Origin: Branchinecta lynchi
Taxonomy: Eukaryota; Arthropoda; Branchiopoda; Anostraca; Branchinectidae
Direction of reading: 5' to 3'
Length of the DNA: 64,000 nucleotides
NCBI GenBank assembly: GCA_023053575.1
Contig: JAKZAP010000003.1
Coordinates: forward strand, 7,354,561 to 7,418,560
Part shown: positions 24,102 to 45,246 of the stretch, piece by piece
Numbering within the stretch: the first letter of the stretch is position 1
Layout: each line of letters opens with the position of its first letter
Notes under the pieces: model-generated
Seen by the model: the letters and a program-made list of their open reading frames with translations, nothing else
What the model was told of the DNA's origin: nothing
The model's database searches: none
Position numbers and translations under genes: made by a program

Positions 24102-24239
24102 TTATGCTGTTTGAGATCTCTGTACTATCCGTTTCTGCACTTCTTCACTCTGAAGCTGCTCCAAGGTTAGCAGTGAGACACCAAGTTGGTCTTCTCGGCT
24201 GAACGGCTGCGCCATCTGTCTCAACCAGCGACGGGCGAT
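24102..24239 (-). CDS. ERCC2: ERCC2/XPD helicase, last coding exon
   Basis: The minus strand reads, after a TTTTTCGCTAG acceptor, [20 protein letters not shown] and then a [13 protein letters not shown] end to a TAA at 24104-24102. This matches the conserved C terminus of XPD (the RQMAQPF...EDQLG...SLLxLEQL region), the 5'-3' DNA helicase of TFIIH used in transcription initiation and nucleotide excision repair. The exon enters in phase 0, as required by the end of the exon at 45148-45246. The intron between them, about 20.9 kb, contains the whole Polinton. The reading frame shows no defect. Confidence 0.9.
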
Positions 24240-28698: not shown

Positions 28699-28704
28699 TA
28701 TCTG
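28699..28704 (+). repeat. Polinton target-site duplication, left (TATCTG)
   Basis: TATCTG abuts the left end AGTAGT. The same hexamer follows the right end at 44792-44797. Six-base duplications are the norm for Polintons/Mavericks. Confidence 0.92.
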
Positions 28705-29357
28705 AGTAGTTATATAAACCGGATCCTAGACCACCCTTCCCCCAATTTCAAAACCCCATTTTAACATCAATTTCTTAAATTTTAACATCCTTTTTACCAA
28801 ATTATCCCCCTTTTTCAGAACATTTTTATTTTCTTACTTCCAAAATAAAGGATACAAGAAATGAGAAATATTACCCTTTACTACATATAAAATACTACAA
28901 TATACACTAAAATACCACTACTTCTTTTTTTTTACATTTTTCTATTTTTATTCAAATATAATACCAATTCTACTGAGTAAACAGTTCTAAATCCACATAT
29001 GTTTCTTTGTTCTTGTTTTCGCGTACAATCGGTTGCAAAACTAGATTTTTCTTTAAAAGTAATTCGTTAGCAATAGCATTATATTTCTGTGTTATCAACA
29101 AATCACATGGTTTGTCATTATGATTAATGACGACAACCAACTTATCACCGTATTTTGTCTTAGCAATTCTCATTTTAACAATAGTATATTTCAAACCTAG
29201 AACTAGTTCTTCTTTCCTGATTGTCTCATTGTATTTATTCATTCTGATTGTATTCAAGACTTCCTTTGTGGACTCCATTTATTAGTGGATGATTTTATTA
29301 AATAAAAATCCAGGCTCACAAACTCACATACATATTTTTATTGATAATACCTAATGT
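28705..29357. repeat. Polinton left terminal inverted repeat
   Basis: 653 bases, inverted relative to 44140-44791, with only scattered differences. It contains a whole copy of the 102-aa gene (minus strand) and, at its inner edge, the reversed last 13 codons of the major capsid gene (ending at ACCTAATGT). The repeat boundary therefore cuts into a coding gene at the other end of the element. Confidence 0.93.
28970..29278 (-). CDS. TIR-borne 102-aa protein, left copy
   Basis: An intact frame starting inside ACTAATAAATG, the element's shared start motif. It differs from the right copy (44218-44526) at very few bases; one change turns CDLF in the right copy into CDLL here. Residues about 23-60 (EELVLGLKYTIVKMRIAKTK, then YGDKLVVVINHNDKPCDL) have the alternating hydrophobic pattern of a small beta-barrel, such as an OB-fold single-strand DNA-binding protein; this is a guess from pattern only. 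Having the gene inside the TIR gives two copies, one at each end, both transcribed outward. The function is unknown. Confidence 0.75.
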   Translation of the reverse strand: MESTKEVLNTIRMNKYNETIRKEELVLGLKYTIVKMRIAKTKYGDKLVVVINHNDKPCDLLITQKYNAIANELLLKKNLVLQPIVRENKNKETYVDLELFTQ

Positions 29358-29515
29358 AAAAAAAAAAAAAATCCAAATCGATATTCATCACATCAGCAAA
29401 TTAAAATCTCCTCGACGTACCCACAATTCTACCTCTAGTACTAATAAAGCTCTTAGGGCAACAAAAAACAGGAAATCTCATTTGCGCAAAACATTTCGTT
29501 GCGGAGATTCTGCAG

Positions 29516-29725
29516 GCCCCGTTGGTGTAGTGGTCTAAGATGTTGCAACGTCTTAGATCAACCACTTCATCAATGATGTCGTGAGATCGAATCCCGCCAT
29601 CAACTTGAGGTTAATGGTGAGGATGGCGAACAAAAAACTCAGAGGGTTTCCTCCCCTCACGGGGCACCCCAGACACACCATAGAAAAATAATAAGACGAC
29701 AAATAAAAATCTTCAATCTTCAAAG
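29516..29725 (+). repeat. tRNA-derived SINE inserted in the Polinton
   Basis: GTTGGTGTAGTGG at 29521-29533 fits a pol III A box and GAGATCGAATCCC at 29583-29595 fits a B box, with spacing close to that of a tRNA gene. A body and an A-rich tail (AAATAAAAATCTTC) follow. There is no good tRNA cloverleaf 3' end, so a SINE fits better than a tRNA gene. It lies between the left TIR and the first inner gene, in a stretch with no element gene, and was probably inserted after the Polinton. Confidence 0.5.
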
Positions 29726-29926
29726 TCTGGGGTGGGAGGTTTTGCAAAATTCTTATATTTTTGGTAAATTTTCTTGTGTTTTCATAGATTCATTCTTGCA
29801 ATATTTATAGCCATTCAGACGGACTTGTTTCATATATTTTTCGCGAGGAAAAAATCGAAAGGTTTAACGCATCTCTGTTTCACGCTGAATTACCTCCTCA
29901 ATTGTTAATTGTCCGCATTTTAGCAA

Positions 29927-30175
29927 TTACAACAACTCAGTATAAAAATCATAAATAGTCCTAAATTCTGCTTTTCTATCAGCAATGCTTAACTGCTTTT
30001 CAATAATTTCGATGATAACAGCACCCAAACTTAAAGAAGCTAAAGGTAGCACTAGAAACGCAGACATTCCTGCTGCCGAAAAGAGGAATTTGGATACAAG
30101 TAAGCTATTACTTATACGATTGTAGTACTTGTAACTGCGACGGTAAACATACATTTTCTTTTCTAATTCTTCCAT
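29927..30175 (-). CDS. small hydrophobic (membrane) protein
   Basis: 82 codons, starting in ATAATAAATG like the other element genes. The first 25 residues are basic and aromatic (YVYRRSYKYYNRI). They are followed by a hydrophobic stretch at about residues 30-58 (FLFSAAGMSAFLVLPLASLS) long enough for one or two membrane spans, and then a charged C-terminal helix. Small membrane proteins at this end are common in Polintons and adintoviruses, but I cannot match it to a named family. It is divergent from the polymerase gene across the 86-base repeat block, so both may be controlled from there. Confidence 0.6.
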   Translation of the reverse strand: MEELEKKMYVYRRSYKYYNRISNSLLVSKFLFSAAGMSAFLVLPLASLSLGAVIIEIIEKQLSIADRKAEFRTIYDFYTELL

Positions 30176-30221
30176 TTATTATGTAATAAAATTGTTTCAG
30201 AAATTATTTGATTGAATGAAT

Positions 30222-30495
30222 GCTTCGCGGATCGGAACACATCCGCCACCTGCTAAACTGTACTGAAACTTTCTTGACTGATTGGAGACAATCTAGACAG
30301 CGCTTGCTCCGTGAATCGCAAAACACATCCGCCACCTGCTAAACTGTACGGAATCTTTCTTGACTGATCGGAGAGAATCTAGACAGCGCTTGCTCCGTGA
30401 AACACAAAACACATCTGCTATCTACGGAACTGTACGGAATCTTTCTTGACTGATCGGAGAGAATCTAGACAGCGATGCTCCGTGAAACGCATACT
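30222..30495. repeat. 86-bp tandem repeat, three copies, divergent intergenic region
   Basis: ATCCGCCACC starts at 30241 and 30327 and its variant ATCTGCTATC at 30413, an exact 86-base period. Each unit contains TTTCTTGACTGAT(T/C)GGAGA and TCTAGACAGCG(C)TTGCTCCGTGAA. The block lies between the leftward membrane-protein gene and the rightward polymerase gene. A promoter/enhancer or factor-binding array is a reasonable inference. Confidence 0.88.
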
Positions 30496-30570
30496 GAAAC
30501 CAGTGCTTTTCTTTACGGCTGAGAAAACGCAGACGGGAGAAATTCATAAATAAAAATATTCTCCTAATAA

Positions 30571-32582
30571 ATGATGACAACTGCAGAGGTTATTCAGCTT
30601 TGTAAAAAGGTTATATCGAACAACAAATCGGTTATACAAAGATTACCGCTATACACATATAATGAACTGCGGACTTATGAGAAAATTAATAAAATCAAAA
30701 CAAATGGAGCTAAGAAACATGAAATAACAAATAGTATAATAAACCATCTTAATAAGTATATTTTGATAGCTGAAGATAAAATTAAAATTGAACGCAGAAA
30801 CGAAAGAACTCATAATAAGAACAGACCATCCGACTACAAACCAGAACCGAGATTACGAACCATTCTGGAACATGAGATAGAAGAAAATAATACTACCATT
30901 ACAAAAATAATACAAGAGAAGGAAAAGATAAAAGAAAAAGATACGAGTCAATTAAAAAGATTTCTAAAAAACAAAAACCTATCCACCCGTGGAAACCGAG
31001 ATGAAGTCATACAAAAGGTTGAAGAATACTATAATAATATTATTACCAAATATAAAGATTCCGTACAGAAAAATAGAGATATCATAAGAGATCAAACAGA
31101 AAGACGTGATAACAGTAGACAGAAACCAATTGGTTTATCAACTCTCTTCATAAATAAGAAAAAAATTAAAGAAGAAAAATTAATTCCTGATCATTTATTT
31201 AGAACGGAAGAAGAACAGCAGCCTACTATTTTTAGCGAAAGTGAGAATATCTATATTGTAAACATTTCAGTTCAAGGTAATGGAGTTGACGAGCATACTC
31301 TTATTGCTTTTACTTTCGCAGATTTACAGCGGCGAATGAACGAAATAAATCAATATAGAGTTCAGTTCGTAACGCATGTTATTTTCCATCGACAGGAAAA
31401 CGACTAAGAAGTAGAAGTGTTTTACAACAGTTCTTCTTGGATTTTAAATAAAAATAGCATACTTACTCATAGTCATCTAGATGATACAGACAAAAGACTT
31501 AGTTCTTTAAGTAATACCCCTCGATCAGGACTACAGTTCCGTTGATACGATAAAATTGATTATCGGATGACACGAATAGAATCTTACATGGGAGGAACGT
31601 TTAAAATACTACCAGATTTCGTAATAAATAATAAAGCGTGTATAAATATAAAAAATAACGACCAGAAATGTTTCCTTTGGTCTATCTTAGCAAATCTACA
31701 TCCAGCTAAGGATCATGTTGATAGACTATCAAATTATAAACAATATGAGAACGAATTTGATTTTAAAGGGGTAACCAACTTCCCAATGGATACAAAAGAT
31801 ATACACACATTTGAAAATAAATATAACATTAAGATTTGCTTATTTCAAATTGATAAAGAGAAAATAATCAGAAGTCATATACTAAAAAGTACAATCAATG
31901 GCAAAACAGCTAAATATGTTATTAATTTACTGTATTTCGATAATCATTATGTACTGGTAAAGGATCTGAGCAAACTAGTCGGCACTCAAATCTCTAAAAA
32001 CAAAACAAAGACATACCTCTGCACTTTTTGTGGAAGGCATTTTACAAAAGAAGAACACTTTAAAAAACATGAAGGTAAGAATAATTGCGAAGATCCTGAT
32101 ATAATAATGCCTCCTGAAGGTTCAAGTATACAATATAAAAATATTGCAAAACAAATGAAAGTACCCTATTGCATAATAGCAGACTTTGAGTCTTATAATG
32201 AAGAGTACAATCAAGTCACGGGAAGAAAACAATAAGAGTGGCCAAACAGAAACCATTTGCTTACAGATTTCAGGTATGCTGTTCCTTTGATACAAACCAG
32301 AACAAATACTATGACTATTTCGGTGAAGACACTGCAGAACATTTTGTTAAAACCGTTACAAAAGTATCCACAGAAATTGCAAACAAATATGAAAGCAGAC
32401 AAAGAAACCACAGTTATACAGATGTAGAAATTGCACAAATGTGGAAAAATCTAATGAATAAGACTTGTCATATCTGTAAAACTGAAATTACTGAAAATCC
32501 GCACATTGATCACGACCACATGACAGGAGAAGATAGAGGTTTTGCTCATGCTGAATGTAGATTTACAATCATGTTGAGAGAA
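30571..32582 (+). pseudogene. protein-primed DNA polymerase B, 5' part (SAP-like, exonuclease I); broken
   Basis: The frame starts at an ATAAATG. An in-frame TAA at 31405 and TGA at 31543 interrupt an otherwise continuous frame, and a one-base frameshift lies near 32230. Residues about 115-160 hold a SAP-like segment (TSQLKRFLKNKNLSTRGNRD). Then come the conserved Polinton pPolB N-terminal block (NNKACINIKNNDQKCFLWSI), a C2H2-like finger (CTFCGRHFTKEEHFKKH), the exonuclease I motif (CIIADFESYN), and an HNH/endonuclease VII-like cysteine/histidine cluster (CHICKTEI...HIDHDHMTG). The gene is then cut by a LINE. The family replicates the linear element using a terminal protein as primer. No sign of a separate SAP gene exists, because both parts share one frame. 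Confidence 0.88.
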
Positions 32583-35029
32583 TAAATGTTGAGAGTTCCG
32601 CCCAAGTCAGAATGGATCATTGTTGGGGATTTTAATTGTGACCTTACGGATGATCAAGATATCAGAGCATCTATGTTGTTTTCTGCACTTCCTCAATACG
32701 CTCTAATTCATAAAAATTCAGACGATACTTATATTCATAATTCAGGCGCGTCGTCCAATATTGACCATCTAGTTTCTTCGGATATTAATCTATGTCCAAG
32801 TATAGTTGGTGTTTGTGCTGATATCCCTATTAGTGATCATCTTTACCTGTCGTTTACTCTTGTTATTCCCATCCCCGTATTGTCCATTACGAGTAATATA
32901 GTCCGTTCTAAAAAATGTACATGTATGGATTGGGATAAAAAGAGAATTCAAATTTATCACGTTGAAACGGATAAAATGCTGTTAAAAATTGTCGACAAAA
33001 AAACATGTCTTGATCAAGTTGATATAGATATTTTTTATGCTGAATTGGTCCATTGTATGAAAGAAGGAGCGAAAAATGCTTTTAATAGTAGATCTTTTTA
33101 CCCGGGAACACGAGTGTTTGCATGGAAATTTAATGAGTTATTAAAAGATGCAAACACGAAAGCCTCTTGTGCGTTTCGTCTGTGGCGTTCAGCGGGAAGC
33201 CCAAGGTTTGGTCCTTTTTTTGGTGGTATGAAAGCTTCTAAATCGCTGTTCCGCAAGGAATTAAGATTTCACAATGATTTTATTCGGGATGAAATTGGAT
33301 ATCGTATTTCTGAAGATGAAGATGAGCTGTGGAAATTTGTGAGAAATAAGTCACATAGAAAGCACCCGCATGATAAAAGTTGTCTTGGGGCTGATAATTG
33401 GATTGCTCATTTTAATGGTACTTTTTCTAGAATTGATGAGACGATACATTGTAAACTTGATTCTGAATTTGAAGAAGAATTGTCTAAGCATGTAATATCG
33501 GATATTAAAATTGAAGTAGATGATGTAAAAGAAGCTATAAGAAAACTGAAAAGCAAAAAATCTTTAGATTGTGATGGTTTACATGCTAATCATCTAAAAT
33601 GGGCTTCACACAATACTATTATTATGATTGCATCCCTGTTTACTTTTATACTTAAGTCAGGTTTGGTTCCGTCGAGTTTTTTAAAATCCACAACTACCCC
33701 CCTATTAAAGAAAGGAGGTAACCCAAATGATTGTAAATCTTTCCGTCCAATAACTACTTCTTGTCAAATGAGTAAACTTTTTGAGCTAACACTCCTCCCG
33801 TATTTTGGTAGTTCTAATCAAGGTCTGAATCAAATTGGTTTCAGGAAAGGGTTGAATATTGATGTAGCTCACACTCTTCTGTCTCGTATTTTGAGTTCTT
33901 GTAGTTATAGTAATAGAATATATGTATTAGCCCTAGACATTGCTTCAGCATACGATAGTATCATCCACGCTTGGGCCCTTAGATCTTTGTTGAAGAATGG
34001 CGTACCAGTGAGGATAGTACTCATGTTGCGTCGGTGGTTTGGAGCTTCTCGAATTAGAGTTCTTTGGAAGGGTTCTTTCACTGATTTTTATGTTGTTCTA
34101 AACCGGGGTCTTCGTCAGGGTGGGATTCTTTCTCCAGTGATTTTCAATATAACTATCGCTGCATGTCTTGATGGTGTACAGTCTTCTTTTATTTATGGTA
34201 AAGGTATCCTAGCTTCTCTTATAGCGTATGCTGACGACATACTCCTTATAAGCCGTTCTCTATCGGGCCTTCAGAATAATGTAAATTATCTAGTTAAGTC
34301 TTTTAATGAATATGGCCTGATTTTTCGACCTGAAAAATGCCAGTTTATGGTTTTTGGTCCAAAACCCCTTGAACAAATTTCTCTTTCAGTATCTGTCCGT
34401 ATAAGTAATTCAATCCTAAAACCATGTGAGTCTTTGAGATATCTGGGAATCCCTTATGGCCCGACTTTGACATTAACGAGGGCTCTAATAGTAAAAGATG
34501 TGGAGTCGCGTATTTCTGCTAGTTTCGGGGCGGTGATTTGTCTTAGGGATTTCCTATCTAGACGCAATCTTGCAAAGATTTTTAACACTGTTGCTCTTCC
34601 ACAGGCTTTGCTTGCATCTTCTTTTTTACCCTTTTTAACGTTATCAAATTTATCGCGTATCAAAACTACTTTTTTTAATTTTGGGAAATTTTTATGCCGG
34701 TTTTCTAAATACCAATCCAGTTCTTTTATGATGGATAATTATGGGTTAAAAAACCCCATTGATATTTTGAAAAAGAAACGGGAAACATTTTTTTCAAAAA
34801 TTTATTCCATAAAGCACACTTTGTCCGATGCGTTGCGTTGATTGTATTTTGGTTAAAGTGTTAGGTAGACTTCATTTAGGATAGTGTAGGCTAATTGTTT
34901 TTTAAATGACGTAGAGTTTTTATGAAAGTATATGGTCTAGTTATTAGTTTGTAGACCGATTGTATGAATTTTATTATATTTTTTTCTACTCGCCAGCTTT
35001 GGCGGATACAAATAAATGAATTGAATTGA
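32583..35029 (+). mobile_element. 5'-truncated non-LTR retrotransposon inside pPolB
   Basis: About 2.4 kb. It starts within the apurinic-like endonuclease, carries RT and ends in a 3' UTR with a short GAATT-type tail (ATGAATTGAATTGAAT). It is flanked by polymerase-gene sequence. ATGTTGAGAG occurs at about 32571 and again at 32586, a possible small duplication at the 5' junction. A clean target duplication with the 3' side is not evident. The element is in the same orientation as the polymerase gene. Confidence 0.88.
32586..34841 (+). CDS. LINE ORF2 fragment: endonuclease C-part and reverse transcriptase, 751 codons open
   Basis: The open frame begins with the second half of the EEP endonuclease (EWIIVGDFNCDL at residue 9, SNIDHL about 58, ISDHLYL about 82). 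RT follows: palm/finger entry TPLLKKGGNPND, motif A LALDIASAYDS about residue 453, motif B LRQGGILSP about 512, motif C IAYADDILL about 547, and LRYLGI. It ends shortly after the thumb region. The uninterrupted frame contrasts with the broken host gene and indicates a recent insertion. The 5' part is missing, so the apparent ATG is fortuitous and the copy is dead on arrival. It is related to, but diverged from, the copy at 62,900-64,000. Confidence 0.85.
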   Translation: MLRVPPKSEWIIVGDFNCDLTDDQDIRASMLFSALPQYALIHKNSDDTYIHNSGASSNIDHLVSSDINLCPSIVGVCADIPISDHLYLSFTLVIPIPVLSITSNIVRSKKCTCMDWDKKRIQIYHVETDKMLLKIVDKKTCLDQVDIDIFYAELVHCMKEGAKNAFNSRSFYPGTRVFAWKFNELLKDANTKASCAFRLWRSAGSPRFGPFFGGMKASKSLFRKELRFHNDFIRDEIGYRISEDEDELWKFVRNKSHRKHPHDKSCLGADNWIAHFNGTFSRIDETIHCKLDSEFEEELSKHVISDIKIEVDDVKEAIRKLKSKKSLDCDGLHANHLKWASHNTIIMIASLFTFILKSGLVPSSFLKSTTTPLLKKGGNPNDCKSFRPITTSCQMSKLFELTLLPYFGSSNQGLNQIGFRKGLNIDVAHTLLSRILSSCSYSNRIYVLALDIASAYDSIIHAWALRSLLKNGVPVRIVLMLRRWFGASRIRVLWKGSFTDFYVVLNRGLRQGGILSPVIFNITIAACLDGVQSSFIYGKGILASLIAYADDILLISRSLSGLQNNVNYLVKSFNEYGLIFRPEKCQFMVFGPKPLEQISLSVSVRISNSILKPCESLRYLGIPYGPTLTLTRALIVKDVESRISASFGAVICLRDFLSRRNLAKIFNTVALPQALLASSFLPFLTLSNLSRIKTTFFNFGKFLCRFSKYQSSSFMMDNYGLKNPIDILKKKRETFFSKIYSIKHTLSDALR

Positions 35030-37155
35030 ATGGTAATATGAAATACAGGATTCCCAAGCATATCCCTGTAGTAATGCATAATTTATCAAAATATGATTCT
35101 CATTTATTTGTTAGAGAATTGATACCTGATAACGGAATTTTTGAAAGTGCAGAAAGTTTCATCTCATTCTCGAAATCAATAAGTATTACAAAAGCGGATA
35201 CGAAAATTAAATATGAGATGCGGTTTATAGATTCAATTAGATTTATGGCTTCATCTTTAGACAAACTATCAGCAAATTTAGCAACATGTGATTGCAAAGT
35301 ACCTTGTAATCATCTAAGACAGAATTTCAATTTCACATCTAACATTTTCAAAAATGACGATGAATTCAAAGAAATAAATAAAAAAGGGGTATATCCCTAT
35401 GAATTCGTAGACAGTTTCGATAAAATGAATGGTACAAACTTACCATTCATAGAAAGCTTTTATTCTAGGTTGACAGGGAAAGGTATTGACAAAAGTGATT
35501 ATAAAAGAGCGGTATCTATATGGAAACAATTTAACTGTGAAACATTACTTGATTATACCAAGTTGTACCCAAAAAGTGATGTATTAATTCTATCAGACGT
35601 AGTGGAGAATTTCAGGAACGTTTGTATACGAAATTATGATTTTGATCCACTTCATTACTTCTCAGCTCCTGGGTTGACATGGGATTCTTTCTTAAAGCAT
35701 TCAAAAGTAGAACTACCGCTATTCTCGAAGGAAGACATGTATACATTCATTGAAAAGGGGATAAGAGGTGGTGTATCGCAATGTATAAAGAGATATGCAA
35801 AAGCAAATAATAAATATATGAGTAGTCATGATAAGGATAAACCATCTAATTATTTAATGTATTTGGACGCTAATAATTTATATGGTTGGGCCATGTCACA
35901 ACAATTACCAGCGAATAATTTCCAATTCATTCCAATACCGGATGATTTGAAAGAAAGGAATGAATACGAATCATTCGAGTATTACAACCATCTAAAAACT
36001 CATATCAAGTCGATAATGAAATTTCAGAATGTAGGTGCTATATATGAAGTAGATTTAGAATATCCAAAAGAACTACACGAATTACACAAGGATTTACCAT
36101 TAGCACCCGAACATTTTAATGGTAAGCTATGTACCATTGTAAATAAGCTATGTACCATTGTAATATGTAAACCAACTATGTAGTTCACCATAGGAATCTA
36201 GAATTCTATTTACAAAAAAGTTTGATATTGAAAAGAGTACACAGAATACTAGGATTCACTGAAAGTGCTTACTTAAAAGGATACATAGACCATAACACAG
36301 CCCTTAGAACTAAGGGTACAAATGACTTTGAAAAGGACTTCTTTAAGCTCATGAATAATGCTTGCTTTGCAAAAACTATGGAAAACGTAAGGAAGCGAGC
36401 GGATATGGAAATAATTACGGATGATACAACAAGAGAAAAAATAATAAAGAAACCCAATTTTAAATCTGAAATAATATTCAGTGAAAACTTTTCAGGAGCA
36501 AGAATGTCAAAGGAAAATATAAAATTAGACAAACCAATGTATATCGGCTTTGCTGTATTGGAACTATCCAAGTTATTGATGTATGAATTCCATTATGATT
36601 ATATGAAACCTAAATATGGAGATAAAATTGATTTATGTTATATGGACACTGATTCTTTCATATATGATATTAGAACTGAAGATTTTTATCAAGATATCAA
36701 ACAAGATTTGAATGAGAGGTTCGATACATCTGATTATGCGAAAGATAATCCATATGGGTTTCCTAATGTAAACAAGAAAGTGATAGGAATGATGAAAGAT
36801 GAAGGTGATAGGAATGATGAAAGATGAATTAGGTGGACAGGTTATGACAGAATTTGTTGGATTACGATCAAAAGTTTATGCTTTTGTAAAGGACAACCAA
36901 GACCCTTCAAAAGCTAGCAAAAAACTGAAAGGAATAAAAACCAATATAGTTAAAGATAAAATTACGATTCAAAACTATAAGGATGTACTGTTTGGTAAAA
37001 CTGAAAACCTTTCTGTGACCCAGTACAACTTAAGATCATACAAGCACAATATGTTTCTAGAAGAACAGAATAAAAAAGCATTAGATCCAAAGGATGATAA
37101 AAGGATAGTATCAAGCGATAAATTTACAACTTTGCCTTTAGGTTATGAACATTAA
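35030..37155 (+). pseudogene. protein-primed DNA polymerase B, 3' part (Exo II/III and polymerase motifs); broken
   Basis: It resumes after the LINE with the exonuclease II region (HNLSKYDSHLF). Then come a C-x-C/C-x3-H cluster, exonuclease III (YPKSDVLILSD), polymerase motif A-type YLDANNLYGWAM, motif B-type KLMNNACFAKTMENVRKR, and motif C YMDTDSF. Two short tandem duplications break the frame: about 20 bases around GCTATGTACCATTGTAA (36125-36165) and about 26 bases around GGAATGATGAAAGATGAA (36777-36828). The last part ends at a TAA (37153-37155). All catalytic motif residues are present despite the breaks, so the decay is recent. Confidence 0.92.
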
Positions 37156-37380
37156 ATTCAAGTACCTACTTAAATCAAATCAAGTACCTACTTAAATCAA
37201 ATCAAGTGCCTACTTCAAAAATTCAAGTACCTACTTAAAAACTTCAAGTACCTACTTCAAAACTTCAAGTACCTACTTCAAAAATTCAAGTACCTACTTA
37301 AAAAATTCAAGTACCTACTTAATAACTTCAAGTACCCACTTAAAAAATTCAAGAATATACTTAAAATACTCAAGTAAATC
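37156..37380 (+). repeat. short tandem repeat, TTCAAGTACCTACTTAA units
   Basis: About eleven units of roughly 18-23 bases with the core TTCAAGTACCTACTT start right after the polymerase stop codon and end just before the ATPase gene. The last units (AAGAATATACTT, CAAGTAAATC) are decayed. Position between two genes suggests a 3' processing, termination or regulatory role, or simple slippage expansion. Confidence 0.9.
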
Positions 37381-37407
37381 TTATAATGAAAAATTCTTCC
37401 TAAATAA

Positions 37408-38076
37408 ATGAATGAAAAGGCACCAATCAAAGTGTATGATTTTAGCGAAAAGAATAACTATCAGAACAAACACGAACTTGCACCTCAGTGGCCATTTAGA
37501 TTATTAATTTGTGGAAGTTCTGGAACAGGAAAAACCAGTTTACTCTTGAATTTAATTTATGAATATATCTGTTTCGACCGAATATACTTGTATGCAAAAG
37601 ATCTTGAAGAAGATAAATATAAAGATCTCATAACCAATTTAACCACCTTGGAATCAAAATGTAAAACGAATATTTTAACCGTAAGTAATGACCTTAATGA
37701 TATTATTGATGTTGACGATCTAGACCCTAAATACCAAAACTTGATTATCTTTGATGATTTTGTTACTGAAAAAGACCAGAAGAAAATAGAAGACTTATTC
37801 ATACGAGGAAGAAAGAAAAATGCCTCAATTGTTTATTTATCACAGAGCTATCATAAAACCCCAAAGGTGGTAAGACTTCAATGTAATTACTTCGCATTCT
37901 TTCAGTGCTCTAATCCAAAAGAAATAAAATTAATCAGACAAAATCATGTAGACGATGAGTACTTTATGAAACAATTCGAGGTTGCAACCAAAGGCTACGG
38001 ATTCTTCTTTGTTGAATTAAAAACAAAAGATAAAGATATGATTTATAGGAAAAACTTTGAAAAGTTTACTAGATAA
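37408..38076 (+). CDS. A32-type genome-packaging ATPase
   Basis: 222 codons, start in AATAAATG. The Walker A motif is at residues about 33-41 (ICGSSGTGKTSLL) and the Walker B motif at about 113-118 (LIIFDDF). A sensor/arginine-finger-like region follows (FIRGRKKNASIVYLSQSY). This is the FtsK/HerA-superfamily ATPase of Polintons, virophages and NCLDVs, which packages genome DNA into capsids. The length is typical for the Polinton family, and the frame is intact. It is the first gene after the polymerase and its tandem repeats. Confidence 0.94.
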   Translation: MNEKAPIKVYDFSEKNNYQNKHELAPQWPFRLLICGSSGTGKTSLLLNLIYEYICFDRIYLYAKDLEEDKYKDLITNLTTLESKCKTNILTVSNDLNDIIDVDDLDPKYQNLIIFDDFVTEKDQKKIEDLFIRGRKKNASIVYLSQSYHKTPKVVRLQCNYFAFFQCSNPKEIKLIRQNHVDDEYFMKQFEVATKGYGFFFVELKTKDKDMIYRKNFEKFTR

Positions 38077-38092
38077 TTTCGTTCTGTTATAA

Positions 38093-38710
38093 ATGAATAA
38101 ATTCGGTAGTGTTGGGAAAAAGGTTAGTAACGAATCGAATGAAAAGAGAGTTACTGATGACAACGGTAATATTAACCTACAAGATAACATAATTATTATG
38201 TTAGGGGATGCGAAAGCTGACCAGGACGCTATTAGTTTCAGATCTATGACTATTATTTTGAATCAATTTAAAGAAGAAATTACCGCACAACAAGTGGGGG
38301 CAAATCAGTATTTTAGCGAAGATATCAACAGATTAACTGCAGTACATGATTCTCCTGATAATTTATTGGTAAGGATTAAAGATAAAGGGTTATTTGTAAA
38401 AGAAATAATTCGAGTTAATGATAAAGAGATTAACGCTGAAAACAAGTTGATAACAAATGTTCAAAACCCTAGAAATAAAAATGATGCTGTTAATTTAGCT
38501 ACGTTAACTACGAATCTTTTAGATTATGACAAAAAGCTTCTTGGGCAACACACCCATAACGGTATAATTGAAGGAAAGATTGCTGACCAAAAAACCCGTA
38601 TCGATAATATTGAAAGAGCAGTAGTAAATATTTTAAAAAGGCTTCTAGAGCTAAAACCTGTTGACAAACCATTCGTTACCAGAATAGAAAAAATGATGGC
38701 TGGTAAATAA
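38093..38710 (+). CDS. fibre-like virion protein (putative)
   Basis: 205 codons with start in TTATAAATG, 16 bases after the ATPase stop. Residues about 116-140 (NKLITNVQNPRNKNDAVNLA) closely resemble the ITNVxxPxxxxDAV(N/T) repeat found in trimeric phage and virus tail/fibre proteins. A histidine-containing loop (LLGQHTHNG) and a long C-terminal helical region follow. Location among structural genes supports a virion surface or attachment role. That role is inferred from the motif and context; no catalytic motif is present. Confidence 0.6.
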   Translation: MNKFGSVGKKVSNESNEKRVTDDNGNINLQDNIIIMLGDAKADQDAISFRSMTIILNQFKEEITAQQVGANQYFSEDINRLTAVHDSPDNLLVRIKDKGLFVKEIIRVNDKEINAENKLITNVQNPRNKNDAVNLATLTTNLLDYDKKLLGQHTHNGIIEGKIADQKTRIDNIERAVVNILKRLLELKPVDKPFVTRIEKMMAGK

Positions 38711-38740
38711 ATTTTATAAGATAAATTAATTCCCTAATAA

Positions 38741-38917
38741 ATGGTTGAAACAATGGAGTATACAGTTTATTTGTCAAAGCTTCAGAAAGGAAAGCTGAAG
38801 AAATGTTTTGGTGCTAAACAAAAATGTCAGATACGTGTTAGTCATAGTAGACAAAATGAACGAGAACCAGTAAAGTTACTTTACGACAAATTGATAAAAT
38901 TGAAAAATATAAAATGA
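38741..38917 (+). CDS. 58-aa basic protein, overlaps next gene
   Basis: The frame starts at CTAATAAATG and ends at a TGA that overlaps the next ATG (ATGA), a translationally coupled arrangement. The product is small and lysine-rich (KLQKGKLKKCFGAKQKCQIR), with no known domain. The start motif is the main reason to call this a gene. It could be a DNA- or RNA-binding virion core peptide. Function is unknown. Confidence 0.6.
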   Translation: MVETMEYTVYLSKLQKGKLKKCFGAKQKCQIRVSHSRQNEREPVKLLYDKLIKLKNIK

Positions 38918-39385
38918 ATAATAAAGGTTGTGATACTGATGTATCATACAAACAGATGAAAGAAGCGATTCAAAAGGGTGGATTACTTCCTTTCCTAATA
39001 CCGTTAGCAATTACCCTTGGTAAGGCAGCTTTAACCAGTGGTGCTGCTGCTTTGGGTACATTCGCTGGTAAGAAAATTATGGATAAAATGACCAACACAG
39101 GTGGTGCGCTAAAACTTCCTGGAAAACAAAAAGTTGTGGGTAATGGGGTACGTGGGAAGGAAACCAATGATGTCAACATAGGTGGAGCGCTTAAACTTCC
39201 TGGAACACAAAAAGTTGTGGGTAATGGGGTACGTGGAAGGCCTAGGAAATAAAAAAAACGATGATTTCAACACAGGTGGAGCGCTTACACTCCCTGGAAC
39301 ACAAAAAGTTGTCGGTCATGGGGTACGTGGAAGGCCTAGGAAGTCAAAAAACGGGGATACCAAAAAAGAAGCAAAAGTAAAGTAG
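38914..39385 (+). CDS. pX-like core protein with repeated C-terminal motif (frameshifted)
   Basis: Residues 27-60 are a hydrophobic, glycine/alanine-rich segment (GGLLPFLIPLAITLGKAALT), the signature of adenovirus pX-like/membrane-active minor proteins reported in adintoviruses. After it comes a tandem repeat, GGALKLPGKQKVVGNGVRG, which occurs twice before a TAA at 39250-39252. A third copy, with a longer basic tail (KSKNGDTKKEAKVK), sits in a different frame after a run of A and ends at 39385. The third unit was probably part of the same protein. The basic repeats suggest DNA binding. The start lacks the strict TAAATG but reads TATAAAATG. Confidence 0.65.
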
Positions 39386-39752
39386 GACCTCTAACCAATT
39401 TTGATATTATGGATGCTTTAGGGGATATACCACATTTAGAGGTGTTTTCTCTATAGATACGCTACCCAAACAGATAAATAACCTAGAATGCGGTGTCATT
39501 AATTATGATAAACTCGGAATGCCTGGAACTCACTGGGTTGCCTATTGTAATCTACCTGAATACCCCCATGTAGAATTTTTCGATTCTTTCGGCATTCCCC
39601 CGGGAAAAGAAATAATTAAATATCTAAAAACTTCAAAGAAAAAAACAGCTTATGAAAATCTTGCTGTTCAAAATATAGATGAATTAAACTGTGGACTTCA
39701 ATGTATTTCCTACATTAAGCGCAAAATGAAGTTGGTAGCTTTTCGTTTATAA
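39386..39752 (+). pseudogene. adenain-type cysteine protease, frameshifted
   Basis: The 3' frame (39519-39752) has the catalytic His in GTHWVAYCN, an acidic residue in EFFDSFG, the oxyanion glutamine region QNIDEL and the nucleophile in NCGLQCISY. These are the hallmarks of Ulp1/adenain proteases that mature Polinton capsids. The N-terminal block around TNFDIMDALGDIP and FSIDTLPKQ lies in neighbouring frames with a break near 39440. No TAAATG start is present upstream, so the gene may have been fused to the upstream pX-like protein or initiated internally. The catalytic set appears intact even though the frame is broken. Confidence 0.88.
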
Positions 39753-39769
39753 AAATTGTTTTCTAATAA

Positions 39770-39904
39770 ATGGAGATTTATTGTATGAAATGTAAAAAGA
39801 AAACTGATACTGAATCAATGTTTAATGCAGTGTCACAGAAAAACAATGTTCCAATGCTGAAAGGGAATTGTGTTATTTGCGGATCGAGGAAAAATCTGTT
39901 TTAA
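39770..39904 (+). CDS. Cys4 zinc-ribbon protein (DUF5679-like)
   Basis: 44 codons, start in TTCTAATAAATG. Two CxxC pairs (YCMKCKKKT at residues 5-13 and NCVICGSRK at 33-41) flank a PMLKGN segment, as in the small DUF5679-type zinc ribbons carried by many large DNA viruses and Polintons. It ends at a TAA that lies in TTTTAAAAAAAAAC. The integrase frame is the -1 frame from there. This could be a stand-alone zinc ribbon or the N-terminal zinc domain of an integrase fusion. Confidence 0.8.
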   Translation: MEIYCMKCKKKTDTESMFNAVSQKNNVPMLKGNCVICGSRKNLF

Positions 39905-40854
39905 AAAAAAACCTCGACGCAGAAAAAGATATATTAAAGACGTATTATTCTAATTATTCAGGTGTTGATGATATCCACAGAAAATTAAAAGAAAATGGAG
40001 TGAACGTTTCTAAAGATAAAATAAAAAATGTGTTGCAAAATGAGAATGTGTATACGTTAGACAAACCTTCCTATCAGAATTTTGAAAGGAGACGAGCCTA
40101 TGTTCACTATGTTGATGAGCAATGGCAAGCTGATTTAGTTGACCTCCAGAAATATAAAAAAGCGAATGATAAAGCAAACTACATCTTGACTGTTATTGAT
40201 TGCTTTAGTAAATACGCTTGGTGTGTCCCTTCGAAAGATAAAACGGGTGCTGGAATAATAAACGCATTCAGTCATATATTTAAAGAAAGAATTCCTAGAA
40301 AGTTGCAAACTGATAAAGGTAACGAATTTGTTATGAGAAATGTTCAATCTTTTTTGAAAAATAACGATATGAACTGGTTTGCATCTGAAAGTGAACTGAA
40401 GGCACAAATCGTTGAACGATTCAACAGAACTCTGAAAGAAAAGCTATGGAAATATTTTACTCACAACAACACTAACAGATGGATTGATATTCTACCTGTA
40501 TTCGTAAATAATTATAATAACTCGTATCATCGCTCAATACAAATGAAACCAACTGATGCTAGTAAAAAGGTAAATCAGAAAAAGGTTTACAGTGCTCTGT
40601 TTCCTCCAGTAGATGACTACAAAATCACAGGAAATTCACAGAGTCACAACGTCAAAGTAGGGGATTTAGTCAGAATTAAAAAAGAAAAAAGTGTTTTTGA
40701 TAAAGGATATTTACCGAATTATACGGATGAAGTATTTCAGATAGCAACCATCAGACCTACCATTCCCATTACTTATGAAATATCTGACAAAAGTGGGGAA
40801 TTAATTCAAGGAGGGTTTTATGAAAAAGAACTTTCAAAATTTATTATGAAATAA
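39900..40854 (+). CDS. retrovirus-type integrase (DDE)
   Basis: The N-terminal part has a helix-turn-helix-like block (GVDDIHRKLKENGVNVSKDK). The catalytic core follows: first Asp in WQADLVDLQ, second Asp in KLQTDKGNEF, Glu in AQIVERFNRTLKEK, the rve-fold DDE triad. The C terminus is an SH3-like/chromo-type tail (VKVGDLVRIKKEKSVF). No in-frame ATG exists before the core; the frame simply opens out of the zinc-ribbon gene's A-run, so the real start is unclear. The enzyme inserts the element and produces the 6-base duplication. Its stop is at 40852-40854, followed by the next gene's TATAAATG. Confidence 0.93.
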
Positions 40855-40870
40855 AATTACTTGTATATAA

Positions 40871-41690
40871 ATGGATTCAAGACGCTTGAGTGATATTTTA
40901 TCGGATATAATGAAGAACAGAGAAATTCAGAGAAGAAAGGTTCAACAAAATGAGATGGAGAAGGCAAGATTTCGGGAATATGCTTCAGAATTAAACGCTC
41001 CAGTTATTATAGCACAAAAAGAAAACACTAAAGATACCATCAAAAAAATACAAGAGAACGCTGAAACGATAATTAATAAACTACAGGAAGGTGATAATAA
41101 TTCAAGAAGACGGTTTGTCAGATTAGGTGATACATTTAAAACAGCTTTACAGACCACTACTTCAGAGGAATCGAGTCGAGCGCCCACTCATGCTTTAGAA
41201 CCTTCTCCCGATTTAGGTCCACTATCCATTGAAATGAATAAAGATATTACCCAAGAATTGTTAAATCAGATTAATTCAAAACATGTAGTATCGCGGGGTG
41301 GCAATGATCATTATTTTAAAATGCACATGTATTATATTAGTCATTCTATGGATATAGAGGAGGCTCTTTATCATGTAACAAAAATGAGTCAAAGTTATGG
41401 TGGTAAGGGTTACTCTAGCCATGATCAGATTACTGAATTCATAAAGAAATACAAGGATAGGTTAAGAACCATTCAAAATAATTTGGAATTAGTCAAACAA
41501 CAAGGAACTGGAGTATTTATGAATTGTGATGAAATGATTTCAAAATTATACACTTTGATAGGTAGCAGAGTAAACGGAAATACATTCTGATGAGGTGAGA
41601 AATGAAGCTATTGATATTTTGGATTCTTTAATGCGAAATAAATTTCTTACGAAGAGAGATTACAATTCAATATATAAAAAATATTTCTAA
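40871..41690 (+). CDS. coiled-coil structural-region protein (C terminus frameshifted)
   Basis: The main frame (40871-41590, 239 codons) starts at ATATAAATG and opens with a charged coiled coil at residues 1-75. A middle region is rich in S/T/P, followed by a conserved-looking block (GGNDHYFKMHMYYISHSMD). After the TGA at 41588 a different frame continues with EAIDILDSLMRNKFLTKRDY and ends at a TAA at 41688-41690. That tail resembles the C-terminal motif of Polinton structural proteins, so a small indel near 41585 probably ended the frame early. The function is unknown. It lies between the integrase and the penton gene. Confidence 0.65.
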
Positions 41691-41693
41691 TAA

Positions 41694-42418
41694 ATGGTGT
41701 TGTTAAACATTGAAGGTAATGAAAGTATCATTGATATAACATTTAGTCAAACAATCGAATTGAATCGTAATTGGGATTATGAAATAGGTTTGAATCAGTG
41801 TACTTTGTGGTATTCATGGCATAATATAAGTGATAAATTTGGAAATAATACATTTCAATACAGGAAAGATGAAGAGGGAGGGGGGGGGGGTGGATGAATG
41901 TTACTATTCCTAATGGGATGTATAACGATGATTGTTTGAATTATTTTTTGTGTCAGTATTTTGATACAACAAAAGATAAATGTCCTATTGTAATTTCATC
42001 CAATCCAGCATCTATGAGATTGGTCATACTATTACAAGAAAAATATGTGTTTAGATTTAATAGTGACTTGTGTCAGATTTTAGGATTTGATAAGGATAGT
42101 GAGATATCTAAGAAAATCAATGAAGGTATAAAGCTTCCGAATATAACAAGAAGCGTTGATAAAATTCAAATTCACTGCTCTCTTGTAAACAGTTCTATCG
42201 TAAACAAAAGTAAATCAGATGTCATTTGGACATTTGTTCCGAATACAGAACCGGGTTGTCAAATTGTTGAGAATCCTAGACAATTAATCTACCTTCCTAT
42301 TCATACAAAAGACTTTATATACTCCTTGAGAATGACAATTACTGATCAGTTGGGAAGACCTATCGATTTGAATGATGATAACGTTGGATACGTGCTGCAT
42401 TTAAGAAAAGCTTATTGA
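41694..42418 (+). pseudogene. minor capsid (penton) protein, frame broken at a G11 run
   Basis: It starts at TTCTAATAAATG. The first 58 residues (SQTIELNRNWDYEIGLNQCT) are the N-terminal beta strands of the single jelly-roll penton protein. A run of eleven G at 41880-41890 throws the frame into polyglycine and a stop. The rest lies in another frame from 41894: IPNGMYNDDCLNYFL, NSDLCQILGFDKDSE, FVPNTEPGCQIVENPRQLIY and the final IDLNDDNVGYVLHLRK. This matches the conserved Polinton penton arrangement. The length is normal if the G-run defect is ignored. Confidence 0.88.
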
Positions 42419-42466
42419 AAATGAAAGGATTGATAGGATTAGTGAAATAAAATTATTTACCTATAA

Positions 42467-42823
42467 ATGTTGATTAATAATAAGCGATTACTTTATAAAA
42501 GGCAGTATGGAAGTGGAATCGGTAGTGTATTCAAAAACATTGTTAAGTCCCAGTTATTTCAAACGTCAGCAAAACAAATAAAAGATGGGGCTATGTCAAT
42601 GTATAATAATATTATTAAACCGAGATTTGAGTTGTTGAAAAACAGAGCAATAGAATATGGTAAAGATCTGATCGATGTAAACAAGAAGGAACTCATTGAT
42701 GTAATTGGAAACAAAAAATCGATGAAGGATCTTATCGGTACAAATAAAAGGATTTTAAATCAAAGAAGTCAGGACTTGATCAAAACGTTAATGACTGGAA
42801 GTGGATTAAAGATTCTGAAATAA
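42467..42823 (+). CDS. pVI/pX-like small virion protein
   Basis: 118 codons, start in CTATAAATG. The N-terminal glycine-rich amphipathic stretch (RQYGSGIGSVFKNIVKS) and a C-terminal MTGSGLKILK both contain GSG, in contexts similar to adenain cleavage sites. The middle is basic and helical. Adintovirus/Polinton genomes commonly carry such a pVI-like protein between penton and major capsid genes. Cleavage by the element's protease is inferred, not shown. The frame is intact. Confidence 0.65.
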   Translation: MLINNKRLLYKRQYGSGIGSVFKNIVKSQLFQTSAKQIKDGAMSMYNNIIKPRFELLKNRAIEYGKDLIDVNKKELIDVIGNKKSMKDLIGTNKRILNQRSQDLIKTLMTGSGLKILK

Positions 42824-42853
42824 GTTTTATTTAATAATTTCTTTCTTATATAA

Positions 42854-44180
42854 ATGGCAGTAAATAAAGTTATCAGTCCGCAATGGAACATTTTTGATGA
42901 ACCGCTTGTGGATGATACAGTGGTTAAATATGAATTTAAAGAAATTCGAGAAACAGATGTGAATGTATCTAATAAATCAGAGTTTGAATTCGTAACAAAG
43001 AAATTAGATTCTTGGTTTTATCCAAGTGAAAGTTATCTTGATGTCAGTGTAAGAATAGTAAAAGAAAATGGAGATAATATAGATGCAACCGATATTGCTA
43101 CTTTGACGAATAATGGATTTAATTTATTGAGTACCGCTGAGTATGTAATAAACGATGAATCGGTTGAAAAAATTAATCATGTTGGTATTACAACCACCGT
43201 TACAAAGTTGATTGAATACTCTGATGATTATTCTAGAAGTGCAGCAAGAAATCATTTCTGGTATAAAAATTATAATCAAGGGAAAGAAATTAATCCTGTA
43301 GTTGCTTTGTTTACTGCAGGGGCTGGAACAGTCAGGTTGACCAATAATGATAATTATAATAAAGGATTTGAAAAAAGATATAACAGAACAAAGAGCAGTA
43401 AATTAGTAAATATGTATTTACCATTATCAGAATTGTTTGGATTTTTGAAAGGAAACAAACGATTCTTCAGAGGTGCATCGCATAAACTATTTCTAAGAAG
43501 AAATGATGATAACAACATGATTATAAGAAATGGAAATACTAATTTCAAAGTAGTCATCGAGTATTTATCCTGGAAGATCCCTATTGTAGCTCCTAGTATT
43601 GAAATGATGAGTAACTTAGAAAAGGGATTGGCAAAGGACAGAAAGCATAATCTGATGTGGGAAGCATGTAATAGTTATAAAAGCGATGTTAGACAAAACA
43701 AGGAACACACTTGGAAAGTTATTTCTGAGAGAAACAATCCAACAAAAGTAGTTGTGATGCTACAGAAAAATGAAAAGCATAACAATCAATTAATGAATAA
43801 TATGGTGTTTGATCATATGAATTTAACAGACATAGAACTGGGGATAAATATCCTGAAGAACCACTTAAATGTGATTTGGCGATGATAAATGTAAATACTC
43901 AAATCTTTACAATAGGTTCATACATTTGGGTTATAAACAATTAGCATTTGATACTGGTAGTGTTGTTAGTATAGAAGAATTTAAAGAAGTATATCCACTA
44001 TTCTGTTTCGATGTTTCCAAACACGAGTCAAATATTTATAATGGAACAACTGCTGATATTGAAATAAGTTTAACGTTGAAAGATAATCAACCCGTACCAT
44101 ATAATGTTTACTGTGTTATATATTATGAAAGAAAAGCTACATTAGGTATTATCAATAAAAATATGTATGTGAGTTTGTGA
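42854..44180 (+). pseudogene. major capsid protein (double jelly roll), frameshifted near the 3' end
   Basis: It begins at TATATAAATG. Residues 1-330 keep the Polinton MCP arrangement: the WNIFDEPLVDD start, DSWFYPSESYLDV, a central RSAARNHFWYKN block, the conserved LPLSELFGFLKGNKRFFRGA and HKLFLRRND blocks, and YLSWKIPIVAPS. The first frame stops at 43885 after an indel near 43850. The remaining C-terminal segment (HLGYKQLAFDTGS, EEFKEVYPLFCFDVSKH, YNVYCVIYYERKATLG) lies in other frames up to a TGA at 44178-44180. The last 13 codons are within the right TIR. Capsid assembly is the known role. Confidence 0.92.
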
Positions 44181-44791
44181 GCCTGGATTTTTATTTAATA
44201 AAATCATCCACTAATAAATGGAGTCCACAAAGGAAGTCTTGAATACAATCAGAATGAATAAATACAATGAGACAATCAGGAAAGAAGAACTAGTGTTAGG
44301 TTTGAAATATACCATTGTTAAAATGAGAATTGCTAAGACAAAATACGGTGATAAGTTGGTTGTCGTCATTAATCATAATGACAAACCATGTGATTTGTTT
44401 ATAACTCAGAAATATAATGCTATTGCTAACGAATTACTTTTAAAGAAAAATCTAGTTTTGCAACCGATTGTACGCGAAAACAAGAACAAAGAAACATATG
44501 TGGATTTAGAACTGTTTACTCAGTAGAATTGGTATTATATTTGAATAAAAATAGAAAAATGTAAAAAAAAAGAAGTAGTAGTATTTTAGTGTATATTGTA
44601 GTATTTTATATGTAGTAAAGGGTAATATTTCTCATTTCTTGTATCCTTTATTTTGGAAGTAAGAAAATAAAACTGTTCTTAAAAATGGGGATAATTTGGT
44701 AAAAAGGATGTTAAAATTTAAGAAATTGATGTTAAAATGGGGTTTTGAAATTGGGGGGAGGGTGGTCTAGGATCCGGTTTAAATAACTACT
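44140..44791. repeat. Polinton right terminal inverted repeat
   Basis: 652 bases, the inverted partner of 28705-29357. It starts inside the major capsid gene (ACATTAGGTATTATCAA) and ends GGTTTAAATAACTACT. The TIR holds the second copy of the 102-aa gene. A few substitutions and one length difference distinguish the copies. Confidence 0.93.
44218..44526 (+). CDS. TIR-borne 102-aa protein, right copy
   Basis: Start in CCACTAATAAATG, 38 bases after the capsid stop. It is the same protein as the left-end copy except for CDLF instead of CDLL. The sequence is lysine-rich and begins MESTKEVLNTIRMNKYN. The beta-rich middle could be a small OB-like fold. It ends with DLELFTQ. Because it is downstream of the capsid gene with its own start motif, it was probably part of the ordinary right-end gene set and reached the left end when the TIR expanded. 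Confidence 0.75.
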   Translation: MESTKEVLNTIRMNKYNETIRKEELVLGLKYTIVKMRIAKTKYGDKLVVVINHNDKPCDLFITQKYNAIANELLLKKNLVLQPIVRENKNKETYVDLELFTQ

Positions 44792-44797
44792 TATCTG
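44792..44797 (+). repeat. Polinton target-site duplication, right (TATCTG)
   Basis: Direct repeat of 28699-28704, immediately after ACTACT. Confidence 0.92.
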
Positions 44798-45147: not shown

Positions 45148-45246
45148 CTGAACGGCTTCTTCCGTGGACAAGTTGCAGAGGGAATCCTTCAAATATTCCT
45201 GAATCCATTTTGGTAGTTTGCTCCGTTTGTCTGATCTCGAAAATCG
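45148..45246 (-). CDS. ERCC2: ERCC2/XPD helicase, penultimate coding exon
   Basis: Read on the minus strand from the acceptor TTTTACAG, the exon encodes RFSRSDKRSKLPKWIQEYLK and ends ...STEEAVQ before GTAAGC. This matches the RF(A/S)RxDKRxKLPxWIQ segment of XPD that follows helicase motif VI. It is 33 codons in phase 0, joining the exon ending ADK at 49862. The intact splice sites and frame show that the host gene survives next to the large Polinton-containing intron. Confidence 0.92.

What the first reader, a model, noticed from the sequence alone, without database searches (positions are those of the whole stretch)
28705..44791. Complete, precisely bounded Polinton/adintovirus-like element with a near-full virion gene set
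Both ends, the 6-base target duplication TATCTG, the ~650-base inverted repeats and all hallmark genes can be read directly. A copy this complete in a host intron is unusual and gives a reference for a lineage. The gene families are established; that the element once formed virions is inference.
Basis: partly seen in the sequence, partly recalled or inferred. Interest (0 to 1): 0.9.

Follow-up and report, generated by a model that had tools for sequence, protein, structure and literature searches.

The report
Decayed copy of an expanding Polinton
A virus-like mobile element (a Polinton) sits precisely in the last intron of a DNA-repair gene of an unnamed animal; this copy is broken, but it belongs to a family of several hundred copies in the same genome, many with an uninterrupted capsid gene that natural selection still protects.

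Summary
The boundaries are right. The element spans 28705-44791, with 654-nt inverted repeats (643/654 identical) and a 6-bp TATCTG duplication. Seven of eight related empty sites fetched elsewhere in the genome show a single TATCTG. It lies, antisense, in the last intron found of the host XPD/ERCC2 gene. 'Complete' is wrong for this copy. A 2.47-kb LINE insertion, two stops and two frame changes break its DNA polymerase; the capsid gene is frame-shifted, and the penton candidate is shortened. The 751-aa ORF in the middle is the LINE's reverse transcriptase, not a Polinton gene.

The larger result lies outside the window. A polymerase tag of this family occurs 539 times in the 576-Mb genome. 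Of 118 scored capsid-gene copies (best matches of 1066 candidates), 103 are uninterrupted. Of 15 other copies examined for ends, 11 have exact 6-bp duplications, one has a mismatch, three were not resolved. PolB, ATPase, integrase, protease candidate, penton candidate and capsid gene all show purifying selection (median dN/dS 0.09-0.29). A 102-aa ORF inside each inverted repeat shows it most strongly (pN/pS 0.08). The family is a Polinton/Maverick, mosaic, recently active, and most likely spread through particles; that last step is inferred. New member of a known kind.

The parts
28699..28704 (.). left target-site duplication TATCTG
   Evidence: single copy in 7 of 8 related empty sites
28705..29358 (+). 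left terminal inverted repeat, begins AGTAGT
   Evidence: 643/654 identical to right arm
28970..29278 (-). 102-aa ORF inside the left TIR, under strong purifying selection in the family (pN/pS 0.08)
   Evidence: no Pfam match above cut-off
30571..32229 (+). PolB piece 1 (PolB residues about 1-553), N-terminal SAP motifs; in-frame stops end at 31407 and 31545
32217..32558 (+). PolB piece 2 (about 550-663), Endonuclease_7-like motif, in another frame
32560..35026 (+). non-LTR retrotransposon (LINE) inserted in PolB, 5'-truncated; RT ORF 32586-34841; 27 nt at 32560-32586 match neither the LINE nor the other Polinton copies; tail ATTGAATTGA; edges approximate by some bases
   Evidence: 40 genomic candidates scored, this one included, of 737; absent from 11 of 11 other Polinton copies examined
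35035..36141 (+). PolB piece 3 (about 664-1032); listed relatives 41-49% identical
36171..36554 (+). PolB piece 4 (about 1036-1163), frame changed; the C-terminal rest beyond was not compared
37408..38076 (+). A32/FtsK-type genome-packaging ATPase, 222 aa, open
   Evidence: Pox_A32 E=3.1e-13; 2540 relatives of 2838 candidates, best 82%
38093..38710 (+). 205-aa ORF, unknown
39405..39752 (+). candidate adenain-type protease (weak)
   Evidence: Peptidase_C5 E=0.062, below cut-off; dN/dS 0.16
39826..40854 (+). rve (retroviral-type) integrase, open (342 aa stop to stop; 323-330 aa in 6 of 6 other copies)
   Evidence: rve E=3.6e-11; foamy-virus integrase E=8e-8
40871..41590 (+). 239-aa ORF, unknown
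41873..42418 (+). penton (minor capsid) candidate, 181 aa stop to stop; 237-241 aa in 8 of 10 other copies
   Evidence: identity from position and a recalled motif only
42467..42823 (+). 118-aa ORF with GSG motif, pVI/pX-like guess
   Evidence: resemblance recalled
42854..44177 (+). double-jelly-roll major capsid protein, broken: homology runs through three frames between 42854 and 44177
   Evidence: DJR-like_dom E=2.1e-13 and 1.2e-5 for the two main pieces; model of relative P0242 matches iridovirus, PBCV-1, Sputnik and mavirus MCPs
44138..44791 (-). right terminal inverted repeat, ends ACTACT
44218..44526 (+). second copy of the TIR-borne 102-aa ORF
44792..44797 (.). right target-site duplication TATCTG
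24111..24239 (-). last recognised coding exon of host XPD/ERCC2
45148..45246 (-). preceding XPD/ERCC2 exon, about 350 nt from the element's right end

Best explanation
This is a decayed germ-line copy of a Polinton/Maverick family. Its linear DNA was inserted, most likely by its rve integrase, into a member of a repeat family (probably the 3' part of a LINE) in the last XPD intron, duplicating TATCTG (insertion shown; enzyme inferred). Stops, frame changes and a LINE insertion then broke the copy. The family as a whole is numerous and has recent members. Source elements replicate by protein-primed PolB, and their DNA is most likely packaged by the ATPase into double-jelly-roll capsids and carried to new germ-line integrations. 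Recombination between divergent lineages makes the copies mosaic. Shown: anatomy, number of tags, TSDs, open frames, selection, uneven identity along the element. Inferred: protein-primed replication, particle formation, recombination as its cause, and present activity.
For: TIR, TSD and related empty sites. Gene homologies. 539 PolB tags with up to 3 mismatches, 0 for the reversed control. MCP: 118 scored of 1066 first-look candidates; 103 open at 438 aa or more without a stop, 8 with stops, 7 short, the window among them. PolB frame open over all 1163 aa held in 6 of 11 copies. TSDs: of 15 other copies looked at, 11 exact, 1 with one mismatch, 3 with one or both ends not found. Arms of six of them 97.8-100% over the 258-413 nt held, two at 100%. 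Median dN/dS: MCP 0.13 (6 copies), ATPase 0.09 (8), PolB 0.17 (6), penton candidate 0.29 (8), integrase 0.14 (6), protease candidate 0.16 (6); wrong-frame medians 0.90 to 2.9 for PolB, ATPase, penton candidate and MCP. TIR ORF pooled pN/pS 0.08 against 1.62 and 2.79 in wrong frames. Mosaic identity: ATPase region 97-99% to 2 of 10 copies and 84-88% to the other 8.
Against: No transcript, protein or particle evidence. The copies used for dN/dS were picked for full-length frames among the best PolB matches, so intact and close relatives are over-represented; pairs are not independent, and ancestry was not modelled. The 118-aa ORF is uninformative (median 0.56, dS near 0, wrong frames not higher). 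No wrong-frame control was run for integrase or protease candidate. Protease and penton identities are weak. Viral contigs gave no relative of the ATPase or the PolB piece. Of the 10 copies compared at the capsid region, 4 have no full MCP frame; of 11 PolBs, 5 are broken or incomplete. Identical arms can also come from gene conversion.
Confidence: 0.86

Rival explanations
1. The family spreads only as a transposon inside the nucleus; capsid genes are passengers.
For: All evidence is from integrated copies; no relative of the ATPase or PolB piece found in viral contigs.
Against: MCP and ATPase are as constrained as PolB and integrase (median dN/dS 0.13 and 0.09 against 0.17 and 0.14), and 103 of 118 scored MCPs are uninterrupted (best matches only).
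Confidence: 0.15
2. The capsid genes are kept for a host benefit, for example defence against another virus, as proposed for polinton-like viruses of protists.
For: Selection on capsid genes and high copy number would fit; the protist idea stands in the abstract of PMC12220804 (seen in the listing only).
Against: Selection is seen across many dispersed, mosaic copies with exact TSDs, not at one fixed locus. No search for another DNA virus of this host was made.
Confidence: 0.07
3. The reverse-transcriptase ORF is a component gene of a composite 'retro-Polinton'.
For: A 751-aa RVT_1 ORF lies in the middle of the element, same strand, open.
Against: Eleven further near-full-span copies at 98-99% (and one at 95%) elsewhere, with many 5'-truncated ones; absent from 11 of 11 other Polinton copies, which are continuous at that place; it splits PolB.
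Confidence: 0.01
4. Assembly artefact or chance inverted repeat.
For: High-copy 98% repeats can be misjoined.
Against: Exact TSD plus 8 fetched related empty sites continuous across the junction; same anatomy in six other copies.
Confidence: 0.01

Closest known systems
Polinton/Maverick elements of animals (PMC4028283 passages; PMC8097293 sections 7, 8 and passages)
   Same: PolB, rve integrase, packaging ATPase, double-jelly-roll MCP, long TIRs, 6-bp TSD, (AGT)2//(ACT)2 termini, size within the 12.7-24.6 kb of intact vertebrate elements (16.09 kb here, about 13.62 kb without the LINE).
   Different: All recognised core ORFs on one strand (the vertebrate modules usually lie on two); PolB frame begins with SAP motifs; a selected 102-aa ORF lies inside each TIR; 539 PolB tags against up to 287 copies and at most 38 intact ones in the vertebrate figures read (different measures); only 14 MCP relatives found by sequence.
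Adintoviruses
   Same: Animal-associated elements with PolB, integrase and DJR capsid genes (recalled; the founding paper is not held).
   Different: No membership test was possible; closeness to adintoviruses rather than other Polintons was not shown.
Virophages / Mavirus
   Same: DJR MCP fold (Sputnik and mavirus among PDB matches); rve integrase and TIRs in mavirus (recalled).
   Different: Animal germ line; PolB relatives with a species name in the list are animal ones; no giant-virus link was looked for or seen.

Membership tests
Polinton/Maverick | terminal inverted repeats with (AGT)2//(ACT)2 type ends | tested here: met
   motif as given in PMC8097293
Polinton/Maverick | 6-bp target-site duplication | tested here: met
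   window exact with related empty sites; of 15 other copies looked at, 11 exact, 1 with one mismatch, 3 with an end not found
[quoted passage not shown]
   7258 relatives of piece 3 among the 7994 candidates scored; the best one has DNA_pol_B_2 E=8.3e-20. Direct Pfam DNA_pol_B_2 match absent. Broken in this copy; protein priming itself not tested
Polinton/Maverick | RVE-family integrase | tested here: met
Polinton/Maverick | FtsK/A32-type packaging ATPase | tested here: met
Polinton/Maverick | double-jelly-roll major capsid protein | tested here: met
   (fold modelled on relative P0242, mean pLDDT 70.9); no sequence match to solved structures; broken in this copy
Polinton/Maverick | single-jelly-roll penton | tested here: inconclusive
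   position upstream of MCP fits; model unusable (pLDDT 34), no convincing match
Polinton/Maverick | adenovirus-type cysteine protease | tested here: inconclusive
   Peptidase_C5 E=0.062, below cut-off
Adintovirus | features and phylogenetic position as defined by its authors | not tested
   definition paper not held; no PolB tree was built

The most novel reading that the evidence does not exclude
This animal carries a living, recombining population of an integrating capsid virus: hundreds of proviral copies, many capsid genes uninterrupted, insertions young enough for identical repeat arms, a polymerase with its own SAP DNA-binding head, and a conserved gene placed in both terminal repeats, which may act on the DNA ends in replication or integration.
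Probability: 0.35. Interest if true: 0.75.

Novelty: new member of a known kind. Interest (0 to 1): 0.52.

Why it matters
Whether animal Polintons make particles is a long-standing open question (the abstract of PMC8097293 says particles have not been observed). A genome with 539 PolB tags and over 100 uninterrupted capsid genes, with constraint measured on six of them, is an unusually good place to look for expression, particles and polymorphic insertions. The TIR-borne ORF is a concrete gene to explain. The window copy itself is an ordinary decayed insertion.

Tried and rejected
Reverse transcriptase as a Polinton gene: rejected. Allelic empty site: not available in the one assembly; replaced by paralogous empty sites. 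Viral-contig relatives of the ATPase and PolB piece: none; phage records: none for the ATPase. Penton structure from a single sequence: unusable. Solved-structure search with the MCP profile by sequence: none; penton candidate: nothing convincing. Host species: not identified; COX1 matches are short pieces, 13 of 15 with in-frame TGA, so probably nuclear copies of an animal mitochondrial gene (inference). Large host ORFs: no Pfam match in 10. Pairwise dN/dS was out of register for pairs with two of the copies (values 0.61-0.88); it was redone on codon alignments and only the latter is used. Integrase and protease were first missed by a start-codon length cut and redone stop to stop. The first TIR-ORF test (pN/pS 0.06) had picked only sequences with an identical start, which favours its result; it was redone without that condition (0.08). 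Left ends of some copies lay further out than assumed, refetched. Of 15 copies looked at for TSDs, one had no recognisable ends and two had one end outside the stretch fetched.
Full report
Boundaries. One inverted repeat of at least 40 nt is reported in 28400-45100: arms 28705-29358 and 44138-44791. The arms align over 654 nt with 11 substitutions and no gap, and similarity drops to chance right inside. The ends read AGTAGT...ACTACT and are flanked by TATCTG on both sides. This is the (AGT)2//(ACT)2 end motif and 6-bp TSD given for vertebrate Mavericks in PMC8097293 (passages, sections 7 and 8).

Target. The two flanks, joined at one TATCTG, match 40 of 40 scored places in the genome as one alignment across the junction at 83-93% identity, out of 719 first-look candidates. 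Eight of these places were fetched: all are continuous there, seven with TATCTG and one with TGTTTG. So the element went into a member of a repeat family, in which an imperfect 32-bp unit is repeated (27/32 identical). Reverse-transcriptase-like ORFs just upstream suggest a LINE 3' part; this is by eye. The host gene is XPD/ERCC2: the ORF at 49799-50188 matches solved XPD at E about 1e-53. With stretches of human XPD recalled from memory, further coding pieces were found at 45142-45246 (60% identity) and 24111-24239 (70%), both on the minus strand. The splice edges facing the intron read GT at 45147-45146 (so the exon is 45148-45246) and AG at 24241-24240.

Genes. Pfam finds a packaging ATPase (Pox_A32, 3.1e-13), an rve integrase (3.6e-11), a double-jelly-roll capsid protein (2.1e-13, plus 1.2e-5 for its tail in another frame), SAP and Endonuclease_7 motifs. 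The PolB piece at 35020-36183 has no direct Pfam match but 7258 relatives among 7994 scored candidates, 41-49% identical in the 120 listed. The listed rows that show a species name are animals (scallop, spiders, beetles, hydrozoan, coral). The best row carries DNA_pol_B_2 at 8.3e-20. In other copies SAP motifs, Endonuclease_7 motif and PolB form one frame. The MCP has 14 relatives by sequence search among 883 candidates. A model of its relative P0242 (85% identical, mean pLDDT 70.9) matches iridovirus, PBCV-1, Sputnik and mavirus capsid proteins in the PDB with E down to 6e-15 and TM-scores near 0.5, and a MELD-virus protein among viral models. Protease and penton assignments are weak.

What is broken here. 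Against an open PolB of another copy, the window's PolB is in four pieces in two frames, with two further in-frame stops. The ORF 32586-34841 is a LINE endonuclease/reverse transcriptase (RVT_1 8e-29; R2 and LINE-1 in the PDB). Twelve other copies span it nearly whole, eleven at 98-99% and one at 95%, and many shorter ones lie elsewhere (40 of 737 candidates scored). All 39 other Polinton copies listed stop matching at 32559. Eleven of eleven examined resume at 35027, directly after it in their own sequence. The MCP runs through three frames. ATPase, integrase, the 118-aa ORF and the TIR ORFs are open.

The family. A 34-nt PolB tag with up to three mismatches occurs 539 times; the reversed control occurs 0 times. 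At about 13.6 kb each this would be near 1.3% of the 576-Mb genome if the copies were full length, which was not tested. The MCP search scored 118 of 1066 first-look candidates: 103 frames of at least 438 aa without a stop, 8 with stops, 7 short. The scored set is the best-matching one, so the share is not that of the family. Of 11 other copies, 6 have PolB open over the whole 1163 aa held. Of 10 copies, 8 have ATPase, 8 penton candidate, 7 the 118-aa ORF and 6 MCP at full length (length cuts). Uninterrupted frames exist for every gene tested; no copy is singled out.

Age. Fifteen other copies were looked at for both ends. Six pairs: five exact 6-bp TSDs, one with a mismatch; two more copies had one end outside the stretch fetched. 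Seven further copies: six exact, one with ends not found. The arms of those six are 97.8, 99.3, 99.7, 99.8, 100 and 100% identical over the 258-413 nt held. The window's arms differ by 1.7%. Without a host mutation rate, and if gene conversion is set aside, this gives order only: the window copy looks older than five of the six.

Selection. Nei-Gojobori dN/dS on codon alignments: MCP median 0.13 (6 copies, 15 pairs), ATPase 0.09 (8, 28), PolB 0.17 (6, 15), penton candidate 0.29 (8, 28); integrase 0.14 and protease candidate 0.16 (6 each). Reading PolB, ATPase, penton candidate and MCP in wrong frames gives medians of 0.90 or more. The 118-aa ORF is uninformative: 0.56, with near-zero dS and wrong frames not higher. 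PMC8097293 reports strong purifying selection on cyprinid Maverick genes and reads it as spread through particles (passages); the same argument is applied here, as inference.

TIR ORF. Both TIRs encode a 102-aa ORF, alike in both arms but for one residue. Among 11 distinct full-length sequences, two of them the window's arms, pooled pN/pS is 0.08 (55 pairs, 1-16 synonymous and 0-8 nonsynonymous differences) against 1.62 and 2.79 in the wrong frames. Of 23 loci with a match, 10 held the 102-aa frame, 7 ran off the end of the stretch held, and 6 were shorter. Synonymous drift with a nearly fixed protein points to a real gene present twice per element. It has no Pfam match above cut-off. Of 8 papers listed of 40 in a search on Polintons and ORFs in inverted repeats, only a fungal Tc1/mariner paper held the phrase 'within the terminal inverted'; that is not proof of absence. 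A search for Polinton with 'SAP domain' and 'DNA polymerase' found no paper in the library.

Mosaicism. Identity to the window jumps along the element: at 37400-38200, 2 of 10 copies are 97-99% identical and 8 are 84-88%, while at 42200-42600 the 9 copies with sequence there are 97-99%. Among eight full-length ATPase genes, one is 85-87% identical to the seven others, which are at least 97.0% identical to each other; dS reaches 0.79. Recombination or gene conversion between lineages is the simplest reading.

Placement. By gene content, ends, TSD and size this is a Polinton/Maverick. It differs from the usual vertebrate scheme in having all recognised core ORFs on one strand (PMC8097293 gives Xenopus tropicalis as a one-strand case). 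Its 539 tags exceed the vertebrate copy numbers read there (up to 287, at most 38 intact), though tags and elements are not the same measure. Adintovirus membership was not tested. The host species is unknown to me. Papers: PMC8097293 sections 7, 8, passages and the start of the abstract; PMC4028283 and PMC7805220 passages; PMC11071308 outline, abstract and passages; PMC12220804 search listing only.

Noticed in passing
28970-29278 (-) and 44218-44526 (+): A 102-aa ORF encoded inside both TIRs, under strong purifying selection across copies (pN/pS 0.08); a gene present twice per element.
   Followed up: partly
28673-28704 and 44798-44829: The target is an imperfect 32-bp tandem unit (27/32) of a repeat family with at least 40 scored members.
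   Followed up: yes
32587-35031 and the places: A young LINE family (many copies 97-99% identical, often 5'-truncated, tail ATTGAATTGA) has been active in the same genome.
   Followed up: partly
37400-38200 against L061, L063 and others: Two divergent ATPase types segregate in the Polinton family (dS up to 0.79), sign of recombination between lineages.
   Followed up: partly
27205-27589 and 53882-54306: Two arrays of a similar 136-137-bp tandem repeat lie on either side of the element.
   Followed up: no
22173-23412 (-): Overlapping ORFs that by eye carry PHD- and CCCH-type zinc-finger motifs and a coiled coil, perhaps a LINE ORF1; Pfam matched neither of the two scanned.
   Followed up: no
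37154-37376, 36776-36828, 36123-36163, 39167-39351, 30236-30491: Several tandem duplications (21, 25, 21, 94 and 86 bp units) within this Polinton copy.
   Followed up: no
30571-31407: SAP motifs form the N-terminus of the PolB frame in the family.
   Followed up: partly
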